From assembly GCA_018711135.1 (NCBI GenBank), contig DVIS01000014.1, forward strand, positions 1-38,431: a stretch of 38,431 bases of DNA. Direction: 5' to 3'. The notes below the pieces were generated by a model, which worked only from the letters and a program-made list of their open reading frames with translations, was not told where the DNA came from and searched no databases. This DNA comes from Candidatus Onthousia faecavium (GTDB taxonomy: Bacteria > Bacillota_I > Bacilli_A > RF39 > UBA660). Position numbers and translations under genes: made by a program. Below, in pieces: positions 3,796 to 37,908 of the stretch (position 1 is its first letter; each line of letters begins with the position of its first letter).

Positions 3796-4770
3796 TTAAA
3801 ATAACTCTATTACTTTATCTAAAGAATCCCTACCATTAAAGTAGTTAGTCATATTTTTTAAAACTGCAATAATATTAGGACAGATATCATTTATCTTAGT
3901 TATTCTTTCTTGCAAAGCCTTTAAAGCTACTACTCCTTCAACAGTAAAATGATCTAAATACTCTTTTGCTTCTTCTTTATTAAGATATAAAAGAGTCCCA
4001 TAGGTGTAATTACGACTATTTTTACTATTACAAGTTAATAAAATATCTCCTAAGGCCCCATAACATGTAGCAGTTTTTTTAGATCCACCTAACGAATTGA
4101 CTAATAAGACGGCATAATTATAAATTTTAGTAAGATAATAAGCATTGGTAGAATCTTTTTGATACTTACTATTTATACTTCCCATTAAAATAGCAAGAAT
4201 ATTTTTTATAACTCCATACAATTCTAACCCTATTATATCTTCTGTTATTTCTATTTCAACATTAGTATCTTTAAATAGATTTAAAACAATATTTTTAGTC
4301 ATTTCATCTTTGGTAGCTAAAGTAAGACCACAGCGACTATTTACAATTAATTCTTTAGCAAAAGTAGGTCCTGCTAAATAAGAAACATGACCTTTTAAAT
4401 TCAAGTCTTGGTAAATTTCATGCATTAGATAATTAGTACTCTTTTCTAGACCTTTAGAAACTAAAAGAACACGGCTATTAGAATTTAGATAGTCTTTTAA
4501 TTTTATTAAAACCTCTCTTACATAATTACAGGGAATGGCAACGATGATTAAATCAGGCTTTTTTAAGGCTTCAGTTAAACTCAGCGTTACTTTTAAATCA
4601 GAGGCAAGTTTTATACCAGTTAAAACTTTGTCATAAGTATTATTGGAGGTTATTTCTAAATACTCTTCTTCAAAGGTTGTCCAAAGAGTAATTTTTCCTT
4701 TGCTTTTATCATGTAGTAAATTTCCTAAGGCAAGACCAAAAGCTCCTGTTCCTAATATTGTTATATTCAT
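3796..4770 (-). CDS. gpsA: NAD(P)-dependent glycerol-3-phosphate dehydrogenase
   Basis: GpsA reduces dihydroxyacetone phosphate to sn-glycerol 3-phosphate, the backbone for membrane phospholipids, in the cytoplasm. The chosen ATG (4770) gives 324 residues beginning MNITILGTGAFGLALGNLL, with the Rossmann GxGxxG dinucleotide site at the very N terminus as expected. AAGGAAGGTG lies 6 nt upstream; upstream in-frame ATGs would add an unneeded basic extension. Other family features are VSKGLEK and the SYLAGPTFAKEL substrate-binding stretch, with the catalytic Lys in ELYGVIKNI. It is the first gene of an operon with three membrane-protein genes, and a sigma-A promoter lies directly upstream. Confidence 0.95.
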   Translation of the reverse strand: MNITILGTGAFGLALGNLLHDKSKGKITLWTTFEEEYLEITSNNTYDKVLTGIKLASDLKVTLSLTEALKKPDLIIVAIPCNYVREVLIKLKDYLNSNSRVLLVSKGLEKSTNYLMHEIYQDLNLKGHVSYLAGPTFAKELIVNSRCGLTLATKDEMTKNIVLNLFKDTNVEIEITEDIIGLELYGVIKNILAILMGSINSKYQKDSTNAYYLTKIYNYAVLLVNSLGGSKKTATCYGALGDILLTCNSKNSRNYTYGTLLYLNKEEAKEYLDHFTVEGVVALKALQERITKINDICPNIIAVLKNMTNYFNGRDSLDKVIELF

Positions 4771-6124: not shown

Positions 6125-7435
6125 ATGATGAAATTACCTATTGTTGCAATAGTTGGACGACCTAATGTGGGGAAAAGTACATTATTTAATAAAATTGCTG
6201 GAGAAAGAATTGCTATTATTGAAGATACACCTGGAGTAACTAGAGATAGACTTTATCAAGAAACAAGTTATTTAAATAAACCTTTTTATTTAGTTGATAC
6301 TGGTGGAATTGATTTAGGTAATGAGCGTTTTAACGAAGAAATTAAAATGCAAGCGGAAATTGCTATTAACGAAGCAGATGTTGTTATTTTTGTTGTTGAT
6401 GGCAAAGAAGGAATTACTAGTAATGACTTGGTAGTTCGTGATATTTTAAGAAAGAGTAAAAAGCGTATTATCGTTGCGATTAATAAAGTAGATAATAAAA
6501 GTAGTCTTGATAATATCTATGATTTTTATGAATTAGGTTTTGATACTTATATTCCTATAAGCGCTATTCATAATACTGGCTATATTGAGCTAATGGATGA
6601 GGTTACAGAAGGTTTTAAAGAAAAAGATAGTGAAGAGATTGATCCAAGAGTTCATATCGCTATTATCGGTAGACCTAATGTGGGGAAAAGTAGTCTTACT
6701 AATGCTATTTTAAATGAAGAGAGAATGGTGGTTAGCGATGTAGCAGGTACAACAAGGGACTCAATAGATTCTGTTTTTAAATATCATGATGAAGAGTTTG
6801 TATTGATAGATACTGCTGGAATGAGAAAAAAAGGTAAAATCTATGAAAATGTTGAAAAATATAGTTTATTTCGATCAATGGCAGCAATAGATCGAAGTGA
6901 TATATGTCTTTTAGTTATTGATGCAGCTGATGGAATTAAAGAACACGATAAACATATTGCAGGATATGCGATTGAAAAAGGAAAAGGATTAATAATTGTT
7001 GTTAACAAATGGGATATAGCAAAAGAAGAAACTATTAGTGAATATAAGAAATTAATAAAAGCAGAATTTCAGTTTGCTACTTATGCTCCAATTGTATTTT
7101 TGTCAGCGTTGACCAAGAAAAGGATTCATACGTTAATGCCTGAAGTTATAAAAGTAAAAGAAAATATTAAACGAGAAATAAAAACAAGTATTTTAAATGA
7201 TGTAATCATTGATGCTTACCAATTAAATCCAGCACCTAGTTATAAGGCAAAGAGATTAAAAATTTATTTTACTAGTCAAACAGGAATTAAACCACCTAAA
7301 TTTACTTTTAGAGTAAATGATAAAGGATTAGTGCATTTTTCTTATAAACGTTATTTAGAAAATAAAATTAGAGAGAATTTCGATTTTGAAGGAACGCCAA
7401 TTATTTTACAATTTAAGAATAGAAACGGGGAATAA
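6125..7435 (+). CDS. der: Ribosome biogenesis GTPase Der (EngA)
   Basis: Der has two tandem GTPase domains and a KH-like C-terminal domain and acts in 50S subunit maturation. Both G1 motifs read GRPNVGKS (residues 11-18 and 182-189). G3 appears as DTGG and DTAG, and G4 as NKVD (120-123) and NKWD. The KH-like end contains FTFRVNDKGLVHFSYKRYL. Length 436 is normal. ATG ATG at 6125/6128 follows GAGGAGGTG; 6128 has the better spacing, so the true start may be one codon later. A 61-residue ORF follows by 2 nt. Confidence 0.97.
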   Translation: MMKLPIVAIVGRPNVGKSTLFNKIAGERIAIIEDTPGVTRDRLYQETSYLNKPFYLVDTGGIDLGNERFNEEIKMQAEIAINEADVVIFVVDGKEGITSNDLVVRDILRKSKKRIIVAINKVDNKSSLDNIYDFYELGFDTYIPISAIHNTGYIELMDEVTEGFKEKDSEEIDPRVHIAIIGRPNVGKSSLTNAILNEERMVVSDVAGTTRDSIDSVFKYHDEEFVLIDTAGMRKKGKIYENVEKYSLFRSMAAIDRSDICLLVIDAADGIKEHDKHIAGYAIEKGKGLIIVVNKWDIAKEETISEYKKLIKAEFQFATYAPIVFLSALTKKRIHTLMPEVIKVKENIKREIKTSILNDVIIDAYQLNPAPSYKAKRLKIYFTSQTGIKPPKFTFRVNDKGLVHFSYKRYLENKIRENFDFEGTPIILQFKNRNGE

Positions 7436-29956: not shown

Positions 29957-30682
29957 TTATTTACTACTAGGATATAATATTTTCAATACTTCTCCTACCG
30001 TTTTATTATCATTTAACAAATCTTCTTCAATTTTATTAAGTTCTTCCAAAGATTGACTAACAAAAATTATATTATCATCTTCATCATCTATTTTTAATAC
30101 TTTATGAAATTGTTTATTTAATTCATCAAATATATGACTGACAAGCATTTTTTGATATTTTCTTTTTCTTATTTCTCTAAACAAAATATATTGATCAGTA
30201 CACTTTTCTAAATTAGTGTTAACTGATACATATTTTTTAGTCAATTTTAAAGATGCTTTTCCCATAAGATTCATAAGAAAAAAACTATCTCTAGGATAAT
30301 TTTTATCTACAACATTGTCACCTTGCGGATAAGTCATTTTTTTTAAACTATTGAGAATCCTCTTCCTTGTAAAAGTAGTCATAACTTTTTTGGGAAATCT
30401 AATTGTAAATTTTCTATCAATTTTTTCATTTTCATAAAATTTTAATGAAACTACAATTCTAGTATTTTTATCATATAAATATATTACTTGCTTACCATTT
30501 ATTAATAAATTATAAGCAATACGTGAAATTATATTGTCAATATTACTATAATCAAGTTTCTTTTCTAAAATACTATCTTTTTTATTAAATGAAATATATT
30601 TATTATAATCACAATTTAAAGATAATAAAATATTCTCTACAAAATTTTTAATGAATAAAGTATATTCCCAACTATTTTCCAA
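29957..30682 (-). CDS. Unknown island protein, partner of the four-span protein
   Basis: A soluble protein of about 241 residues, rich in Lys, Asn and Ile. I favour a TTG start at 30682, with AGGTGA about 5 nt upstream; a GTG at 30691 is possible. Either overlaps the end of the upstream 819-residue gene, a strong sign of a two-gene module. The sequence has basic stretches (FTIRFPKKVMTTFTRKRILNSLKK) and an acidic C terminus (DDEDDN, IEEDLLNDN). No nuclease, helicase or nucleotide-binding motif is seen. It ends 260 nt before a terminator. Confidence 0.65.
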   Translation of the reverse strand: MENSWEYTLFIKNFVENILLSLNCDYNKYISFNKKDSILEKKLDYSNIDNIISRIAYNLLINGKQVIYLYDKNTRIVVSLKFYENEKIDRKFTIRFPKKVMTTFTRKRILNSLKKMTYPQGDNVVDKNYPRDSFFLMNLMGKASLKLTKKYVSVNTNLEKCTDQYILFREIRKRKYQKMLVSHIFDELNKQFHKVLKIDDEDDNIIFVSQSLEELNKIEEDLLNDNKTVGEVLKILYPSSK

Positions 30683-33131
30683 CTTTATCACCTACTTTTT
30701 TTATTTTTAACCTACAATTGCATTTATCATTTTCATTCAAAAACGGATTAACATAATATACAACAAATATTTCATAAAACCTATAATTAAAATCAATATA
30801 ATCATCAAACATTATTTTAGTAAATTTTTTTACCAACTCATCATCACCATTAACTTCTTTATATTCAAAAAACGTGTTATCACTATTCTTTATTTTTATT
30901 AATTTTTTTCTTGATAAATATGATGCGTATCTTTGATTAATATTAATTGTCATATCATTCATATCAAAACTGTTTAAATCGATAGAAGCATATAATGCCA
31001 TTCTCTTTAAAATTTCCTCCTTATTTTTTGACTTTAGCAAAATATCATTAATAGCATTTTTTACAATTTCTTCCCATCTATTATCATTAGTGATATGTGA
31101 ATGATATATAATACATCCGCTTAATTCCATAAACATGATAATGGGAATCTTATATTTAGAAATTAAATAATTTAAATTATAGTTTTTGTCTAAATTACTA
31201 AATAAAAACTTTTCTGACATAAAACATATAACCGGATAATAATGATATAATTTTTTAAAATTATCATAATCATTATTCAATATAGTTTCAAATATAGATT
31301 CAGAAAAATTATAAAAAATTCCTCCACCAAAATCTATTTTTGAATTCTCATAATCACATTCTACCGAAGTTAAATACACTTTTACATATTCTATTAAATT
31401 TAAATAATGCGTTTTATGAATTTTATTAATTAGATCATCTACATTCAATTTTTCAAACTTTAGATTATATTGATTACCAATTAATACTTCGTAGATTGAA
31501 AGGAAATTATTTAAAACCATAACTGATTTATTTTCAATTTCTATAATTCTAGAATAAATTAGGCAAGCCGATAAATTAAGCTTTTTTTCATTTAATTTTT
31601 TTGCTAGAGAACATATATCATCATAATTAAATTCTATACTTTTTATCAAAGAATATATTTCTTGTATAAAACAAGATATTAAAACTTCATAAACATATTT
31701 ATCTGACGATATTATTTTTCCTTCTAACTTATTTTCATGTTTAAGTTTTTGAATCAAATCAACAATATATTGGTTTGTAAATAATATGTTGTTTTCAGGT
31801 TTTTTTATCAAATCTTTGGTATTAAATTTCCCGTTTTTGAAATATTCATCATATGTTTTGTTTATATATTTTTGTGAATCTAATATAATAGTAACTCTAA
31901 TTAAACCTAACAAATCGATTATGGCCAAATAATTATCATCCTCAATAAGATTACTTTCTAGTACTAATTTTTCGATATTTTTATTAAATTCTATCCAATA
32001 AGTAAAATCGCCACTATTTTCCAAAATATGTTCAAAGAATAAGTAGTAATTATTAATAACTTTAAATAATTCTTCTGATTTTCTGTAATTAATTAAATAT
32101 TTAATAGATTGTATATATAATTCTTTTATATAATCCTCTAGGAAATAATGGTCATATATAGGTTTATTGTTTATTGTTGTTCCTGTTTTTATTCTTGCAT
32201 TAACTTCATAAAAATTCGCTTCAAACCAATTAATAGGATCATATTTAATACGATACCATTTACAGTCTACTGGAATAAGATTCTTAAACTCAGTGTATCG
32301 TATCACAATAGCAAGTAAATATTTTGTAAATTCTGGTATATCATTGATATTTTTTTCAACCATCATTTGTTCTTGCAATGCTTTTAATGTAGCTATTAAT
32401 TGCATTAACTGATTACCATAAGAATAAAAAATACTATCAGCTTTATTTTTTGCAATTGCTTTTCTTAAATATTCAAATCTAATGTTTATTTCCTGATATA
32501 TTGCTTTTGTAAGTGTATTTATATCAGAAAACAAAAATATTCTTAATGCTAATCGAAAGTAAATAATAACAATTCTCATTGTTAAAAAGATTGTTAATAA
32601 AGCTACAATAGAATTTATTTTTATACTAAATAGCAAACATAATAATTGAATAATAATTACAAATAAATAATTAATCATTGATTGAAAATATTTTCTATTT
32701 TCATATTCATTTATAACAGATACTGAAACTTTGGAAACTATATTCATATATTTAGCTGTTATAATTCCAGATAAATTTGAAAGAAACATTGCTATCAAAA
32801 ATCCACCAACACCTAAACAAGCTAATAAATATTGATTATAATTATCCACTATAAATGTTAGAGAATCCAATATTATAGTTATTATTTCTATTTTTCTAAA
32901 AATATTATTAGAGAGCAATATACTTCCTAAAAAATTAACCATACCAAGAGTTAATGTAATATACAATATTTTTTTAATTGTTTTCCAAAATACATATTTA
33001 TCTAATTTAATAAATCTTAAACTATCTTTGACTCTTAAAATTATGTTTTCTAATTTTATTAGTATTTTTTCAATTATTGAGATTTTTTTAAAATGTAATT
33101 TTGCTCGATTAAGACTATATTTATTAAACAT
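30672..33131 (-). CDS. Unknown 819-residue island protein with four N-terminal transmembrane spans
   Basis: ATG 33131 follows GGAGG by 6 nt; the open frame extends ten codons further to a GTG without a ribosome site. A basic N terminus (1-50) is followed by four hydrophobic spans (about 54-74, 99-121, 151-170, 174-193). The remaining ~620 residues are cytoplasmic by charge, helical and Asn/Ile/Lys-rich. They include a conserved-looking aromatic segment WYRIKYDPINWFEANFYEVNARIKTGT. No kinase, nuclease, STAND or TIR motif is evident. The gene overlaps the next ORF by 11 nt and stands directly divergent from the restriction endonuclease gene. Layout (membrane anchor, large helical domain, small partner, RM neighbour) suggests a defence role; this is inference. 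Confidence 0.75.
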   Translation of the reverse strand: MFNKYSLNRAKLHFKKISIIEKILIKLENIILRVKDSLRFIKLDKYVFWKTIKKILYITLTLGMVNFLGSILLSNNIFRKIEIITIILDSLTFIVDNYNQYLLACLGVGGFLIAMFLSNLSGIITAKYMNIVSKVSVSVINEYENRKYFQSMINYLFVIIIQLLCLLFSIKINSIVALLTIFLTMRIVIIYFRLALRIFLFSDINTLTKAIYQEINIRFEYLRKAIAKNKADSIFYSYGNQLMQLIATLKALQEQMMVEKNINDIPEFTKYLLAIVIRYTEFKNLIPVDCKWYRIKYDPINWFEANFYEVNARIKTGTTINNKPIYDHYFLEDYIKELYIQSIKYLINYRKSEELFKVINNYYLFFEHILENSGDFTYWIEFNKNIEKLVLESNLIEDDNYLAIIDLLGLIRVTIILDSQKYINKTYDEYFKNGKFNTKDLIKKPENNILFTNQYIVDLIQKLKHENKLEGKIISSDKYVYEVLISCFIQEIYSLIKSIEFNYDDICSLAKKLNEKKLNLSACLIYSRIIEIENKSVMVLNNFLSIYEVLIGNQYNLKFEKLNVDDLINKIHKTHYLNLIEYVKVYLTSVECDYENSKIDFGGGIFYNFSESIFETILNNDYDNFKKLYHYYPVICFMSEKFLFSNLDKNYNLNYLISKYKIPIIMFMELSGCIIYHSHITNDNRWEEIVKNAINDILLKSKNKEEILKRMALYASIDLNSFDMNDMTININQRYASYLSRKKLIKIKNSDNTFFEYKEVNGDDELVKKFTKIMFDDYIDFNYRFYEIFVVYYVNPFLNENDKCNCRLKIKKVGDKVGK

Positions 33132-33148
33132 AGTGAACCTCCAATCTA

Positions 33149-33195
33149 AAAAATAGAGCACACTCCATCATTAAATGAAATGTAACTCTATTTTT
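33149..33195 (-). terminator. Terminator-like hairpin in the leader of the 819-residue gene
   Basis: Minus strand: AAAAATAGAG (33186-33195) pairs perfectly with CTCTATTTTT (33149-33158) across a 27-nt loop, and the right arm ends in a T tract. Since it precedes the start codon and follows the likely promoter, it could act as an attenuator. Confidence 0.5.
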
Positions 33196-33289: not shown

Positions 33290-33305
33290 TATATTGGTGA
33301 TGTTT

Positions 33306-34691
33306 ATGAGTACCAAAAAAAATTGTAGTCCAAAATTTGTTGAATATATGAATTTTATTGTTAATCATCCAAATTATAAGGGTTTAGCCATTAATAAAAC
33401 TGATGATTCTTATGGTTGGGTAACTACTAAAAAAAGCGATATAGGAAAAAGGCGATTGGAATGGGCTAATAAAAAAGCTAAAGAATTAAATATTAAGCAA
33501 AAACCTGGATATTTAAGAAAAGTAATGTTTAAAGTTCATCCAACCAAAATGAAACCATGCCAAATATGTGGGAAAGTTTTATCTCTCAATTATATCTACC
33601 TAAATAAACCGTTTGTTAATTTACTTAATAAAAAATTTAATTATAATTTCAATGAATTAGATTCTATTTATGATGTTGCTGATATTTTAAAAAGGAAAGG
33701 TGTTAACGAAGATTTAATAAAAAAATATTTCATTTCCTTATTCAAATTAAATAATGATTGTGATAATTCAATGGATATTATAATAAAAGAATGTATACAA
33801 AAATGCTCCGATGGCTTTTCAAAATATTTAGGTCCTGGGGCTATGTCTAATTTTCCAGATAGATTTGATGGATTCCATAGCTATAATAGATGTTGTAGAA
33901 GTAAAGAAGATACTGGTCGCTCTAAAGAAAATTTAAGTACTTATAATAAAGATAGAAGAGCATATGAGTATTGGAGTGACGGAAATATTTTTGCTGCTAA
34001 CAAGTTTATGAAATCAAATTTTTTCAGGGGAACAAGTGCAGATCATATTGGCCCAATTTCTCTTGGCTTTATACACGATCCACGGCAATTAAGAAAATTA
34101 AATAAAAAAGATAATTCTGCAAAGAGAGATAGACTTCAATATAATGATATTATTGAATTAGAAAAGATTGAAGATATAAATAATATTTGTGTTATAAATT
34201 GGTACTCTGATTTAATTTGGGAGTTTATTAAGAAAAATTTAGATAAGTCTTCTGATCTAGAGTTATTTAGAAAAATGTTAAAAACAAATCTTCATTACTA
34301 TATGGAATTATTATGGCATATAATTAATAAATGTAACGATAAAGGAATAAAATTTTTAACTAAAAAATTTCTAGAACCTAAGTATAGAGATTTTAAATTT
34401 GATTATGAATTTAATAATTTAGGGCAAATAATTAACAAATACCCTAGACATGAAACAGATGCTTCTCATAAAGAATTTGATAGATTTGTTAGAATATCTT
34501 TTGAATCAGTAAAAAAATTCCATGAAAAAGAAAACAGAAAAACAAATATAAAATTTAGTCCTGAACAAATGGTTACTGTTAATTTGATATGTGAAATGAT
34601 TAATGATGATAATAATGACGAATTAATATTTGATGTAATGAAAGAATTTGTATCAAGCATTGAATTAAATATAATTAAAGCCAAGGAATAA
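33306..34691 (+). CDS. Alw26I/Eco31I/Esp3I-family type IIS restriction endonuclease
   Basis: A 461-residue protein matching the HNH-type type IIS enzymes of the Alw26I/Eco31I/Esp3I group, which recognise sites with a GTCTC core and cut a few bases to one side. Seen: KPCQICGK zinc pair (C85, C88), the family block FHSYNRCCRSKEDTGRSKEN (190-209), YNKDRRAYEYWSDGN, and the HNH region SADHIGPISLGFIHDPRQL with Asp246/His247, then Asn270 in KKDNSAKRDRL. Eco31I is an established HNH enzyme. ATG 33306 has GGTG 6 nt upstream; the open frame extends upstream to TTG 33294, which is not needed. It converges on its methyltransferase gene. Recognition of a GTCTC-like site is inferred from the family. Confidence 0.85.
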   Translation: MSTKKNCSPKFVEYMNFIVNHPNYKGLAINKTDDSYGWVTTKKSDIGKRRLEWANKKAKELNIKQKPGYLRKVMFKVHPTKMKPCQICGKVLSLNYIYLNKPFVNLLNKKFNYNFNELDSIYDVADILKRKGVNEDLIKKYFISLFKLNNDCDNSMDIIIKECIQKCSDGFSKYLGPGAMSNFPDRFDGFHSYNRCCRSKEDTGRSKENLSTYNKDRRAYEYWSDGNIFAANKFMKSNFFRGTSADHIGPISLGFIHDPRQLRKLNKKDNSAKRDRLQYNDIIELEKIEDINNICVINWYSDLIWEFIKKNLDKSSDLELFRKMLKTNLHYYMELLWHIINKCNDKGIKFLTKKFLEPKYRDFKFDYEFNNLGQIINKYPRHETDASHKEFDRFVRISFESVKKFHEKENRKTNIKFSPEQMVTVNLICEMINDDNNDELIFDVMKEFVSSIELNIIKAKE

Positions 34692-34711
34692 TAACTATTC
34701 CTTGGCCTTTT
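34680..34711. terminator. Bidirectional terminator between endonuclease and methyltransferase
   Basis: GCCAAGGAATA (34680-34690) pairs perfectly with TATTCCTTGGC (34696-34706), with T residues following on the plus strand. Both stop codons lie at or within the hairpin, a compact convergent RM layout. Confidence 0.85.
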
Positions 34712-37637
34712 TATATTCAGAAAGCAAATAATCTAAAAATTTATTATTTTTATAAGACTCAAATATATATTTTGCATTTTCGGAACATTCTATATTTTCT
34801 AAATCTTTAATTGCTTGATTAGCCGTTACCATATCTTCAGTTTTTGTAGTTGTTTTTATTGGAAATAATTCGCTCGGTTCTACTTGTAAATCATTCCTAA
34901 CTGCTATTATGATAACCCTTTTCCGTTTTTGAGGAACACCATATTCACTTGCGTTCAATAAGCGTCCCTCAACCTTATAATTCATTTCTTTATATAAACT
35001 TATAATTTGATTATAAATATTTCCATTTTGAAAGGTTAATAACCCTTCAACATTTTCCATGATAACTAATTTGGGATTTATTTTATTAACAATACAAATA
35101 TAGTGTTTAAACAATTGATTCCTGGGATCATCTATAAACCTTTTACCGGCTAATGAAAAGCCTTGACATGGAGGGCCACCACAAATAATATCAACATTAT
35201 TTTTACTTATATAGTTTATTATATTGCTTTTAGTTTCATCATTTGTTATGTCAGCGCATAACACATTTGATTGAGTATTGTTAATTTTAAAAGTAATACA
35301 TGCACTTTTATCAAAGTCACTTCCCATTACACATTTAATGCCTGCTTTTCTAAATCCAGATGTTAATCCTCCAGCTCCACAAAATAAATCTAGGCTTTTA
35401 TTCAAACCTGTTTTTTTTATGATTTGTTCTCCAATTGCTTTTCCCAATAATACTGGTACAGCATTTCCAACTTGCTTTAATAGTGAAGTTTTATTTCCAT
35501 AGAAATAATACGAATCATCAAAACTTTGAAATCTTGCTGCTTCTCTTACCGATATGACCCTATTATGTATTGGATGCACATAAGTTCCATTGCCAGGTCT
35601 ATTGAAATATGTAGTAATTGTATAGGATGGTTTATTATAATCAATTCTTCCATATAATGTTGTTCTCCCACCAGTTTTAGCTATCTTCTTTAATCTTTCT
35701 GATTTATTTACAGTTTCTATTGGAATATTTTTCCAATTTCCACCCTGCGGAACATTTTTGATCATTTCCAAATCCAAATCACTTAACTTAAAAGTAGTAT
35801 GATTTAAAATTTCATTTTTAAAAACTTTTTGATATTTAAAAATCAATCCAATTATAACTTCTCTTGTAAAATTATCTTTTATACCATATTTAAAAAGTAT
35901 ATTTTCAGCTGTATTTTGTTCTTTTAGTACCTCTAGGCATTCATTATAAGTAATGGCAGGTAATAAATTATGAAAATCATTATAGAAATCATTAATAACT
36001 GTATCTTTTATTTGAACACTTTTATTTAAGGCTTCATAATCATCTAAGGTAAGTTGAATATTTATTCCAAAAAGTTCTTCCACTAAATTATTAATTTTAA
36101 TTTTTTTTGATATATCATGATCTTTTAGCAGTTTTTTTGTGAGAGAACTAATTTTTTTTATTTGATTCCCTTCCAAAGGAATTGGAAACTCATCTATTTC
36201 ATAATTACTAATATGGTTATTTGAATTAAAAAACTTAAAAAACCAATTTATAATATTTGAGTTTAACAAACCTAGTAAATAATAAATATCAATATTATAG
36301 GAATTTTTTTCAATTGATATAAAATTACAAGAATTAGCTAGCACATGATTCTTGGGTATATATGCAAATTGAACTCTTTTTTCTTTTGAAATATTTGATA
36401 TTTGTTGACAAGCGATTCGCTCATTTACGATATAGTTTCTTTTAGGTGTTTTCTCAACAAAATTTTCATTGACAAAATCTATATCATCCAATAATTCATA
36501 ATATTCAGATATATTTCTTCCTCTAATTAAAGGATATTGTGTTTGTGTCGAACCAAATTCATCTTTATAAAGAGTTAAATCTAATTCTCCTCTATAATTA
36601 TTAATAAAATCTAAATTTTTAATTTTTGAAAAACTAGATAACTTAGTTAATATATACTCTTCATAATCATTTAACTTAAAAATAGAATTTCCATTTTGGA
36701 CTTTCAAAAGTAAATTAATATCCACTTTACAAATTTTATTTTCATTATTACGCATTAATATTTTTGTTGTTTTTTGATTTTTTTGAATCAACAGCGTACA
36801 TAAAGCTTGTTGTGCATCTAAATATTTATTATTTTCATCAAATGTATTAATGCTTACTATTTTGTGATTATCCAGTATATATTGTCTTAATTTTTCACAA
36901 GATTTATCTGAAAGAATAGTATTTGGAATGAGAAGATTAACGATTGCATCATCAGATGTATAATTACATAAGATCTCTTCCACAAATAATTTATAAATAT
37001 TTATAACTCCACTTGAAGCATAGAAAAATCTTTTCTTTGCATCACTGCTAATTTTAGAATAATAATCTTTATATTTCTTTGACAAATCTTTATTATTATA
37101 TTCTTTTGCATCAAACTTTAAATTTTTATATGGAGGATTGGTAATAACAATATCAAATTTTATATTGGTATATTTGTTTAGTGGTATGTATTCTTCATTT
37201 AAATTTGTAATATCATAATTCAAATAATCAAAAATATGACTATCAAAATATTTGTTATCTAAATTGTTTTTTAGTATTGTTACAGAAAATTGTTTCAGAT
37301 GTTCAATATAGAATTTTTTTGCGTCACTATTCACTTCACTTATATATATATTATTAATAATAGATACAATATCTTTGCTTTTATAATTATTATCTAGAAG
37401 ATATTTTAAAATTGCAAAAACAAATATTCCGGTACCATTACAAGGTTCTAATATTTTCATATTTATTAATTTACTACAATCAATTTGGTTAAACATTTCT
37501 TTAACCATTTTATATGCTAAATTAAAATCAGTATAAAAACTCCCCGTAACCCTTTTATATGAATAAGTTAATGTGGATTCATATTCTTTGCTATCGATTA
37601 TATAATTTTCAAAAAAAGTATCTTGGTTGTTTCTCAT
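34695..37637 (-). CDS. Bifunctional DNA methyltransferase: N6-adenine domain fused to a circularly permuted C5-cytosine domain
   Basis: ATG 37637 follows GAGGTG by 6 nt and gives 980 residues (numbering from it). Residues ~1-520 form an N6-adenine MTase: AdoMet motif LEPCNGTGIF (63-72), catalytic NPPY (167-170), and a target-recognition region near 340-490 typical of Eco57I/TaqI-like enzymes. From ~610 the protein is a C5-cytosine MTase with motif order changed: target region LDLEMIKNVPQGGNW (~621-635), motif IX (HPxxxR, VREAARFQSF, ~688-706), motif X QVGNAVP (722-728), then motif I DLFCGAGGLTSGF (750-762), PCQ with Cys824, ENV (861-863) and VIII QKRKRV (903-908). Both catalytic sites are intact. 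Alw26I-type systems are known to need adenine and cytosine methylation on opposite strands; here one polypeptide would do both. It pairs with the convergent endonuclease gene. Confidence 0.93.
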   Translation of the reverse strand: MRNNQDTFFENYIIDSKEYESTLTYSYKRVTGSFYTDFNLAYKMVKEMFNQIDCSKLINMKILEPCNGTGIFVFAILKYLLDNNYKSKDIVSIINNIYISEVNSDAKKFYIEHLKQFSVTILKNNLDNKYFDSHIFDYLNYDITNLNEEYIPLNKYTNIKFDIVITNPPYKNLKFDAKEYNNKDLSKKYKDYYSKISSDAKKRFFYASSGVINIYKLFVEEILCNYTSDDAIVNLLIPNTILSDKSCEKLRQYILDNHKIVSINTFDENNKYLDAQQALCTLLIQKNQKTTKILMRNNENKICKVDINLLLKVQNGNSIFKLNDYEEYILTKLSSFSKIKNLDFINNYRGELDLTLYKDEFGSTQTQYPLIRGRNISEYYELLDDIDFVNENFVEKTPKRNYIVNERIACQQISNISKEKRVQFAYIPKNHVLANSCNFISIEKNSYNIDIYYLLGLLNSNIINWFFKFFNSNNHISNYEIDEFPIPLEGNQIKKISSLTKKLLKDHDISKKIKINNLVEELFGINIQLTLDDYEALNKSVQIKDTVINDFYNDFHNLLPAITYNECLEVLKEQNTAENILFKYGIKDNFTREVIIGLIFKYQKVFKNEILNHTTFKLSDLDLEMIKNVPQGGNWKNIPIETVNKSERLKKIAKTGGRTTLYGRIDYNKPSYTITTYFNRPGNGTYVHPIHNRVISVREAARFQSFDDSYYFYGNKTSLLKQVGNAVPVLLGKAIGEQIIKKTGLNKSLDLFCGAGGLTSGFRKAGIKCVMGSDFDKSACITFKINNTQSNVLCADITNDETKSNIINYISKNNVDIICGGPPCQGFSLAGKRFIDDPRNQLFKHYICIVNKINPKLVIMENVEGLLTFQNGNIYNQIISLYKEMNYKVEGRLLNASEYGVPQKRKRVIIIAVRNDLQVEPSELFPIKTTTKTEDMVTANQAIKDLENIECSENAKYIFESYKNNKFLDYLLSEYKKAKE

Positions 37638-37650
37638 ATTTAACACCTCA

Positions 37651-37908
37651 TTATAATGTTATCACAAAAAGGCTTATCGAGACAAGAAAAATGAGACAAA
37701 ACTGAATCCTATTTAAAAGTATTGCAAATAATAAATATTGTTTATTAACTTCACTAATTTTTACAAAAAGTCCATATGTTAACATTAACCTTCTAAAAGC
37801 CAATACTATTAAATCATTTAATTGTTTAATTATATTAGAAAAATCTAGGGATTGGGTTCTCCCATCATAGGAAATTATAGCAAATTTCCAAGTGCTATAC
37901 ATTTCCAT
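37651..37908 (-). pseudogene. Possible remnant of an HsdS-like coiled-coil segment
   Basis: An 85-codon open frame upstream of the methyltransferase, without a ribosome site. The stretch SNIIKQLNDLIVLAFRRLML is reminiscent of the helix that ends type I specificity subunits (KQLDDLI-x-L-x-x-RKL). The rest is hydrophobic and unlike any family I know. It may equally be a chance frame in AT-rich DNA. If real it is the relic of a type I RM locus. Confidence 0.2.

What the first reader, a model, noticed from the sequence alone, without database searches (positions are those of the whole stretch)
33306..37637. Type IIS RM system with one fused m6A/m5C methyltransferase whose cytosine half is circularly permuted
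The endonuclease reads as an Alw26I/Eco31I/Esp3I-type HNH enzyme. The cognate methyltransferase is one 980-residue protein with NPPY (167-170) for adenine and PCQ (Cys824) for cytosine. In the cytosine half, the target region and motifs IX-X come before motif I, and motif VIII with the TANQAIKDL segment is at the C-terminal end. The break lies inside the variable target-recognition region. Circular permutation of C5 MTases has precedent (M.BssHII), and Alw26I-type systems are known to methylate C and A on opposite strands. The combination of fusion and permutation in one chain is unusual and explains how asymmetrical sites could be protected by a single gene.
Basis: partly seen in the sequence, partly recalled or inferred. 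Interest (0 to 1): 0.85.

Follow-up and report, generated by a model that had tools for sequence, protein, structure and literature searches.

The report
Self-regulated Alw26I-type restriction–modification system
This is a DNA-cutting defence enzyme with a single two-headed protective methylase of an already known design, but its methylase gene carries, in its own promoter, two copies of the very site it should modify, at a fixed spacing kept in distant relatives, which suggests that it switches itself down.

Summary
Window 33306-34691(+) encodes an Alw26I/Eco31I/Esp3I-family HNH endonuclease. Converging on it, 37637-34695(-) encodes a 980-aa methyltransferase: an m6A half (NPPY 167-170) fused to an m5C half (Cys824) whose motifs run target region-IX-X-I-...-VIII. 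Un-permuting the m5C half by computer turns two reversed Pfam stretches into one full-length match. It is a new member of a known kind.

New here: (1) two GTCTC sites exactly 14 bp apart lie over the -35 region of the MTase gene. The pair occurs once in the 1.28-Mb genome and recurs at the same place in three relatives (40-62% identical MTase), with unalignable flanks. This suggests autoregulation at the cognate site, a type known for CfrBI, LlaDII and AhdI; I found no report of it for this family. (2) Specificity can be read without a methylome: bases flanking GTCTC vary, and two genomes carrying sister systems have lost GTCTC 14-20-fold. The likely site is GTCTC. Methylation, cleavage and regulation are untested.

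The parts
33306..34691 (+). Type IIS restriction endonuclease, Alw26I/Eco31I/Esp3I family, 461 aa (ATG start; an upstream in-frame TTG at 33294 gives 465 aa)
   Evidence: PF09665 2.5e-86 and TIGR02986 3.8e-124. HNH-like residues D246 H247 N270 align with D311 H312 N334 of the E. coli Eco31I-type enzyme.
34695..37637 (-). Fused m6A + circularly permuted m5C DNA methyltransferase, 980 aa
   Evidence: TIGR02987 412.5 bits plus PF00145 in two stretches of reversed order; motif positions.
36012..37637 (-). m6A half (gamma class), about residues 1-542; motif I LEPCNGTG, motif IV NPPY 167-170
   Evidence: TIGR02987 match to residues 34-545 of the 983-aa reading; conservation in A2.
34695..35831 (-). 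m5C half, about residues 603-980, order TRD-IX-X-I-IV-VI-VIII; catalytic Cys824
   Evidence: Native order 2 PF00145 stretches, rejoined order 1 full-length stretch; Foldseek of the AF2 model to M.HhaI E 6e-14, Rossmann core only.
37693..37697 (-). Distal GTCTC site in the MTase promoter (-60 to -56 from ATG)
37679..37683 (-). Proximal GTCTC site (-46 to -42), over the -35 region; starts 14 bp from the distal site
   Evidence: unique pair in the 1.28-Mb genome.
37650..37661 (-). Candidate -10 elements: TGA-TAACAT (extended -10, 17 nt after the proximal site) and TATAAT just downstream
   Evidence: Read from the sequence by alignment to TGn-TATAAT/TATACT in L004, L005, L023 at 15-17 nt. The generic promoter scan did not list it, so this is inference.

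Best explanation
A complete, probably recently acquired Type IIS R-M system of the Alw26I family. The nuclease should cut next to unmodified GTCTC/GAGAC. One MTase protein protects both strands of this asymmetric site: by analogy with M.Alw26I, its m6A half methylates an adenine of GAGAC and its permuted m5C half a cytosine of GTCTC. Two GTCTC sites 14 bp apart lie over the -35 region of the MTase gene. As MTase accumulates it binds and/or methylates them and lowers its own transcription. This leaves a window of high MTase synthesis on entry into an unmethylated host, then a low steady level that still permits restriction. Shown here: gene content, family membership, motif order, and conservation and uniqueness of the site pair. 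Inferred from sequence statistics: the GTCTC specificity. Inferred by analogy: the methylated bases, cleavage and repression.
For: Families and motif order. Same layout, MTase converging with the endonuclease, in L004, L005, L024, L025, L026, L032, L156, L157; also in L023, where an in-frame TGA sits at the invariant Trp. Site pair: GTCTC-N9-GTCTC at -60/-46 (window), -76/-62 (L004), -62/-48 (L005), -58/-44 (L023). The ten site positions are identical, the spacer 76% alike, the flanks 26-37%; chance expectation is about 1e-5 per locus. It occurs once in the own genome and once in the 4.5-Mb genome holding L023, both times at the MTase promoter. The tree puts L004/L005 on the other side of the deepest Firmicutes fork from window/L023 (94/95 for the fork joining window/L023 with the clade lacking the pair), so the pair is old or arose twice. 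Specificity: 5'-flanking bases of the eight sites are T,T,C,G,T,G,C,A, so neither GGTCTC nor CGTCTC is the unit. GTCTC is the most depleted 5-mer in genomes G791 (24 seen, 501 expected) and G792 (17 seen, 248 expected), roughly evenly over all flanking bases. Precedent for promoter self-site methylation: CfrBI, LlaDII, AhdI (PMC12707154; PMC3874152).
Against: No methylome, expression or cleavage data. G791/G792 carry the sister systems without the pair, so their specificity is carried over to the window by homology (46-48% MTase identity). The own genome shows no GTCTC avoidance (O/E 1.02), which fits recent acquisition but gives no direct support. The promoter is read by eye. The E. coli Eco31I-type locus has no site pair, and no GGTCTC in 9 kb, so the feature is not family-wide. 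The pair could serve another regulator. AF2 models were weak (pLDDT 58 and 52).
Confidence: 0.72

Rival explanations
1. The R-M system is as described, but the GTCTC pair is the operator of a separate repressor or a promoter element, not a target of the system's own MTase.
For: The T-rich spacer is also partly conserved (76%), as for a protein operator. Sister systems use a linked HTH_17 gene (L024, L025, L032), so this family can be controlled by a dedicated regulator.
Against: The conserved unit is exactly the family's core recognition sequence, twice. No regulator gene is shared by the four pair-bearing loci near the MTase. Flanks outside the pair are unconserved.
Confidence: 0.2
2. The site is a 6-bp one (GGTCTC as Eco31I, or CGTCTC as Esp3I).
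Against: The promoter sites have T,T in the window and varied bases in relatives. Avoidance in G791/G792 runs over all four preceding bases.
Confidence: 0.1
3. The MTase is active but the m5C or the m6A half has lost activity, so that one strand is protected only.
For: No activity data; a fused protein can lose one domain.
Against: All catalytic motifs (NPPY; PCQ Cys, ENV, QxRxR, motif IX/X) are intact and conserved in 8 homologues, and an apparently intact nuclease sits beside it.
Confidence: 0.07

Closest known systems
Esp3I / BsmBI R-M system (M.Esp3I)
   Same: One fused gamma-m6A plus m5C MTase (PMC3874165) whose m5C half is circularly permuted in the variable region (PMC5944983); same nuclease family.
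   Different: Site CGTCTC; here the evidence favours GTCTC. No promoter site pair is on record that I could find.
Alw26I / BsmAI / BcoDI R-M systems
   Same: GTCTC specificity and family. M.Alw26I is permuted, and the literature names a single M.Alw26I (PMC5944983).
   Different: Their reference sequences were not in any held collection, so no direct comparison could be made.
Eco31I / BsaI (E. coli locus L153)
   Same: Same nuclease family with HNH residues at the matching places; permuted m5C MTase 41% identical to this one.
   Different: m6A and m5C MTases are separate genes; GGTCTC; no site pair upstream.
CfrBI, LlaDII, AhdI promoter-methylation control
   Same: Cognate sites in the MTase promoter whose methylation changes its expression (PMC12707154; PMC3874152).
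   Different: These are not Alw26I-family Type IIS systems. Here there is a fixed-spacing direct pair of an asymmetric site, kept across divergent members, and regulation is not demonstrated.

Membership tests
Alw26I/Eco31I/Esp3I Type IIS R-M | Endonuclease of PF09665 / TIGR02986 | tested here: met
   PF09665 2.5e-86, well over its gathering score; TIGR02986 3.8e-124 but 415 bits against a curated cut-off of 444.
Alw26I/Eco31I/Esp3I Type IIS R-M | HNH active-site residues (D311, N334 of Eco31I; residue numbers from memory, HNH assignment cited in PMC2816704) | tested here: met
   D311/H312/N334 found in the E. coli protein, D246/H247/N270 here.
Alw26I/Eco31I/Esp3I Type IIS R-M | Adenine MTase of TIGR02987 | tested here: met
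   412.5 bits against cut-off 353.5.
Alw26I/Eco31I/Esp3I Type IIS R-M | Partner m5C MTase with permuted motifs | tested here: met
Alw26I/Eco31I/Esp3I Type IIS R-M | Recognition of (N)GTCTC with m5C on one strand and m6A on the other | tested here: inconclusive
   Indirect only: promoter site pair and GTCTC avoidance in two sister-carrying genomes; no methylation data.
Alw26I/Eco31I/Esp3I Type IIS R-M | Cleavage outside the site | not testable with these tools
   Needs purified enzyme.
Circularly permuted C5-MTase, variable-region break (PMC5944983 type H) | Motifs IX-X precede I-VIII with TRD first | tested here: met
Circularly permuted C5-MTase, variable-region break (PMC5944983 type H) | Complete C5-MTase fold | tested here: inconclusive
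   Core matches M.HhaI (E 6e-14), but the TRD/IX region has pLDDT about 30; sequence profile complete when rejoined.
Promoter self-methylation control (CfrBI/LlaDII type) | Cognate site(s) inside the MTase promoter | tested here: met
   Pair conserved in 4 loci, on the reading that the site is GTCTC; promoter elements inferred.
Promoter self-methylation control (CfrBI/LlaDII type) | Methylation changes transcription | not testable with these tools
   Needs a reporter assay.

The most novel reading that the evidence does not exclude
A clade of Type IIS systems controls its fused two-base MTase through a fixed-spacing (14 bp) direct pair of its own asymmetric recognition sites over the -35 box. 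Each site can carry m5C on one strand and m6A on the other, so one promoter could read two methylation states. A sister clade replaced this switch by a linked HTH protein, and two of its host genomes have been almost purged of GTCTC.
Probability: 0.55. Interest if true: 0.55.

Novelty: new member of a known kind. Interest (0 to 1): 0.42.

Why it matters
The enzyme layout itself adds only another member. The promoter pair would extend self-site control of R-M systems to a widely used Type IIS family and gives a simple, testable switch. It also shows that the specificity of an uncultured organism's enzyme can be read from its promoter and from site avoidance in sister genomes. [quoted passage not shown]

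Tried and rejected
A second m5C MTase elsewhere as the real partner: found on contig C38 but rejected, because it sits in its own LlaJI-type operon. The in-frame stop in L023 as a natural split of the fusion: rejected in favour of TGA read as Trp (or a nonsense mutation), since it falls on the invariant Trp of GGNWK. m5C deamination as the cause of GTCTC loss in G791/G792: GTTTC is only 1.1-1.3-fold over expectation and not singled out among one-step neighbours, so not supported, though the test is weak. Pattern scan of viral contigs for GTCTCATTTN5GTCTC: unspecific; tblastn of the MTase found no full-length fused relative among the held hits, only one partial m5C match. Genome-contig scan with the single protein found nothing; with the m6A alignment it found four relatives. 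More members by family search in Firmicutes genomes: none above cut-off besides the own genome in 395 of the class, 392 of the phylum and 288 of the order. Whole-protein structure prediction: too poor to use.
Full report
What is there. Two genes converge with 3 bp between their stop codons: an endonuclease on the + strand (ATG 33306, 461 aa) and a methyltransferase on the - strand (ATG 37637, 980 aa). The endonuclease matches PF09665 and TIGR02986, the MTase TIGR02987 and PF00145. The HNH-type residues D246, H247 and N270 align with D311, H312 and N334 of the E. coli Eco31I-type protein.

The permutation is real. In native order the m5C half matches PF00145 in two stretches whose profile order is reversed. 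Rejoining the pieces as I-VIII plus TRD-IX-X gives one stretch covering 2-324 of 324 at 265 bits. DNMT1 chains in the PDB show the same reversed segments. An AlphaFold2 model of the half, from six sequences, is weak (pLDDT 58), but its core matches M.HhaI at E 6e-14; the TRD/IX part is not modelled with confidence.

It is not new as an architecture. PMC5944983 names M.BssHII, M.Alw26I, M2.Eco31I, M.Esp3I and M2.BsaI as permuted, all broken in the variable region. PMC3874165 describes M.Esp3I as a gamma-MTase fused to an m5C-MTase and contrasts Eco31I/BsaI, where the two are separate. I found the same fused and permuted protein with a converging family endonuclease in a Lactococcus plasmid (L004), E. 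faecalis plasmids (L005), three Firmicutes MAGs (L024, L025, L026) and three viral-collection contigs (L032, L156, L157), and again in a contig filed as Gallicola (L023), where the gene beside it is cut by the contig end. Split versions occur in L158 and in E. coli (L153; its m5C gene is present in 631 of 5426 E. coli genomes). In the tree the split E. coli and L158 proteins group with the fused L156/L157, apart from the eight Firmicutes-type fusions (midpoint root, L158 a long branch), so fusion or splitting probably happened more than once.

The site pair. Upstream of the MTase ATG lie GTCTC at -60 and GTCTC at -46, same orientation. The pair occurs once in the window against 0.03 expected in shuffles, and once in the whole 1.28-Mb genome. 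L004, L005 and L023 have GTCTC-N9-GTCTC at -76/-62, -62/-48 and -58/-44. Aligned on the pair, the site positions are 100% identical, the 9-bp spacer 76%, the sequence before it 27-35% and after it 26-37%; chance expectation per locus is 1-2e-5. In all four, an extended -10-like element (TGn-TAACAT, TGT-TATACT, TGC-TATAAT, TGG-TATACT) lies 15-17 nt after the proximal site, so that site sits over the -35 position. This promoter reading is mine and was not picked up by the generic scan. No GTCTC lies before the endonuclease gene. Reviews list promoter methylation at cognate sites for CfrBI, LlaDII and AhdI; my searches found no such report for the Alw26I family, and most subscription papers are not held.

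A sister clade does it differently. L024, L025 and L032 lack the pair. Instead a small HTH protein (HTH_17, 9.3e-17 for the L024 copy; the other two were recognised by their sequence) and a 157-165-aa ORF of unknown family precede the MTase. L026 lacks the pair too; I did not identify an HTH there.

Specificity. The bases before the eight promoter sites are T,T / C,G / T,G / C,A, which argues for GTCTC itself. Independently, in 500 kb of the genome holding L025 GTCTC occurs 24 times against 501 expected, and in 375 kb of the genome holding L026 17 times against 248 (third-order Markov). It is rank 1 of 512 by O/E in both, over all flanking bases; in the genome of L024 O/E is 0.60 and in the own genome 1.02. 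I read this as long association in the first two and recent arrival here. Consistent with that, no other genome among 288 of the order, 395 of the class and 392 of the phylum has the endonuclease above cut-off. Avoidance in kin without the system was not tested.

How it most likely works. On entry into a naive cell the unmethylated promoter drives the MTase. As the protein accumulates, it methylates both strands of GTCTC genome-wide, including the two promoter sites, and occupies or modifies the -35 region, so that its own synthesis falls while the endonuclease, with no such sites before it, continues. Shown: genes, motifs, site pair, its conservation and uniqueness. Inferred: specificity. By analogy only: methylated bases, cleavage, repression.

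Verdict. The enzyme is a new member of a known kind. The promoter pair and the site avoidance are the parts worth following.

Noticed in passing
G000 contig C38 (L002 1486-3915; L022 71-5498): A second fused MTase in the same genome: m5C part in canonical order (PF00145 at residues 6-380) followed by an NPPF m6A-like part, 809 aa, with a 248-aa unknown, an AAA protein and an LlaJI-type nuclease (PF09563, 5e-40). Published LlaJI uses two separate MTases, so a fused m5C+m6A one may be unusual.
   Followed up: partly
L025 genome G791 and L026 genome G792: GTCTC is depleted 20-fold and 14-fold genome-wide, the most avoided 5-mer of 512, in genomes carrying the sister system.
   Followed up: partly
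L032 10036-11433 and 11450-12841 (-): Two tandem Alw26I-family endonuclease genes beside one fused MTase on a viral-collection contig.
   Followed up: no
L024 about 6290-6974, L025 about 3940-4641, L032 about 6270-6957: A small HTH protein and a conserved 157-165-aa ORF without Pfam match precede the MTase in the clade that lacks the GTCTC pair.
   Followed up: partly
L023 3385-3387: In-frame TGA at the invariant Trp of GGNWK in a contig binned as Gallicola; suggests a TGA=Trp organism wrongly binned, or a nonsense mutation.
   Followed up: partly
window 29957-33161: 829-aa membrane-like protein and 244-aa protein beside the R-M genes without any Pfam or NCBIfam match.
   Followed up: no
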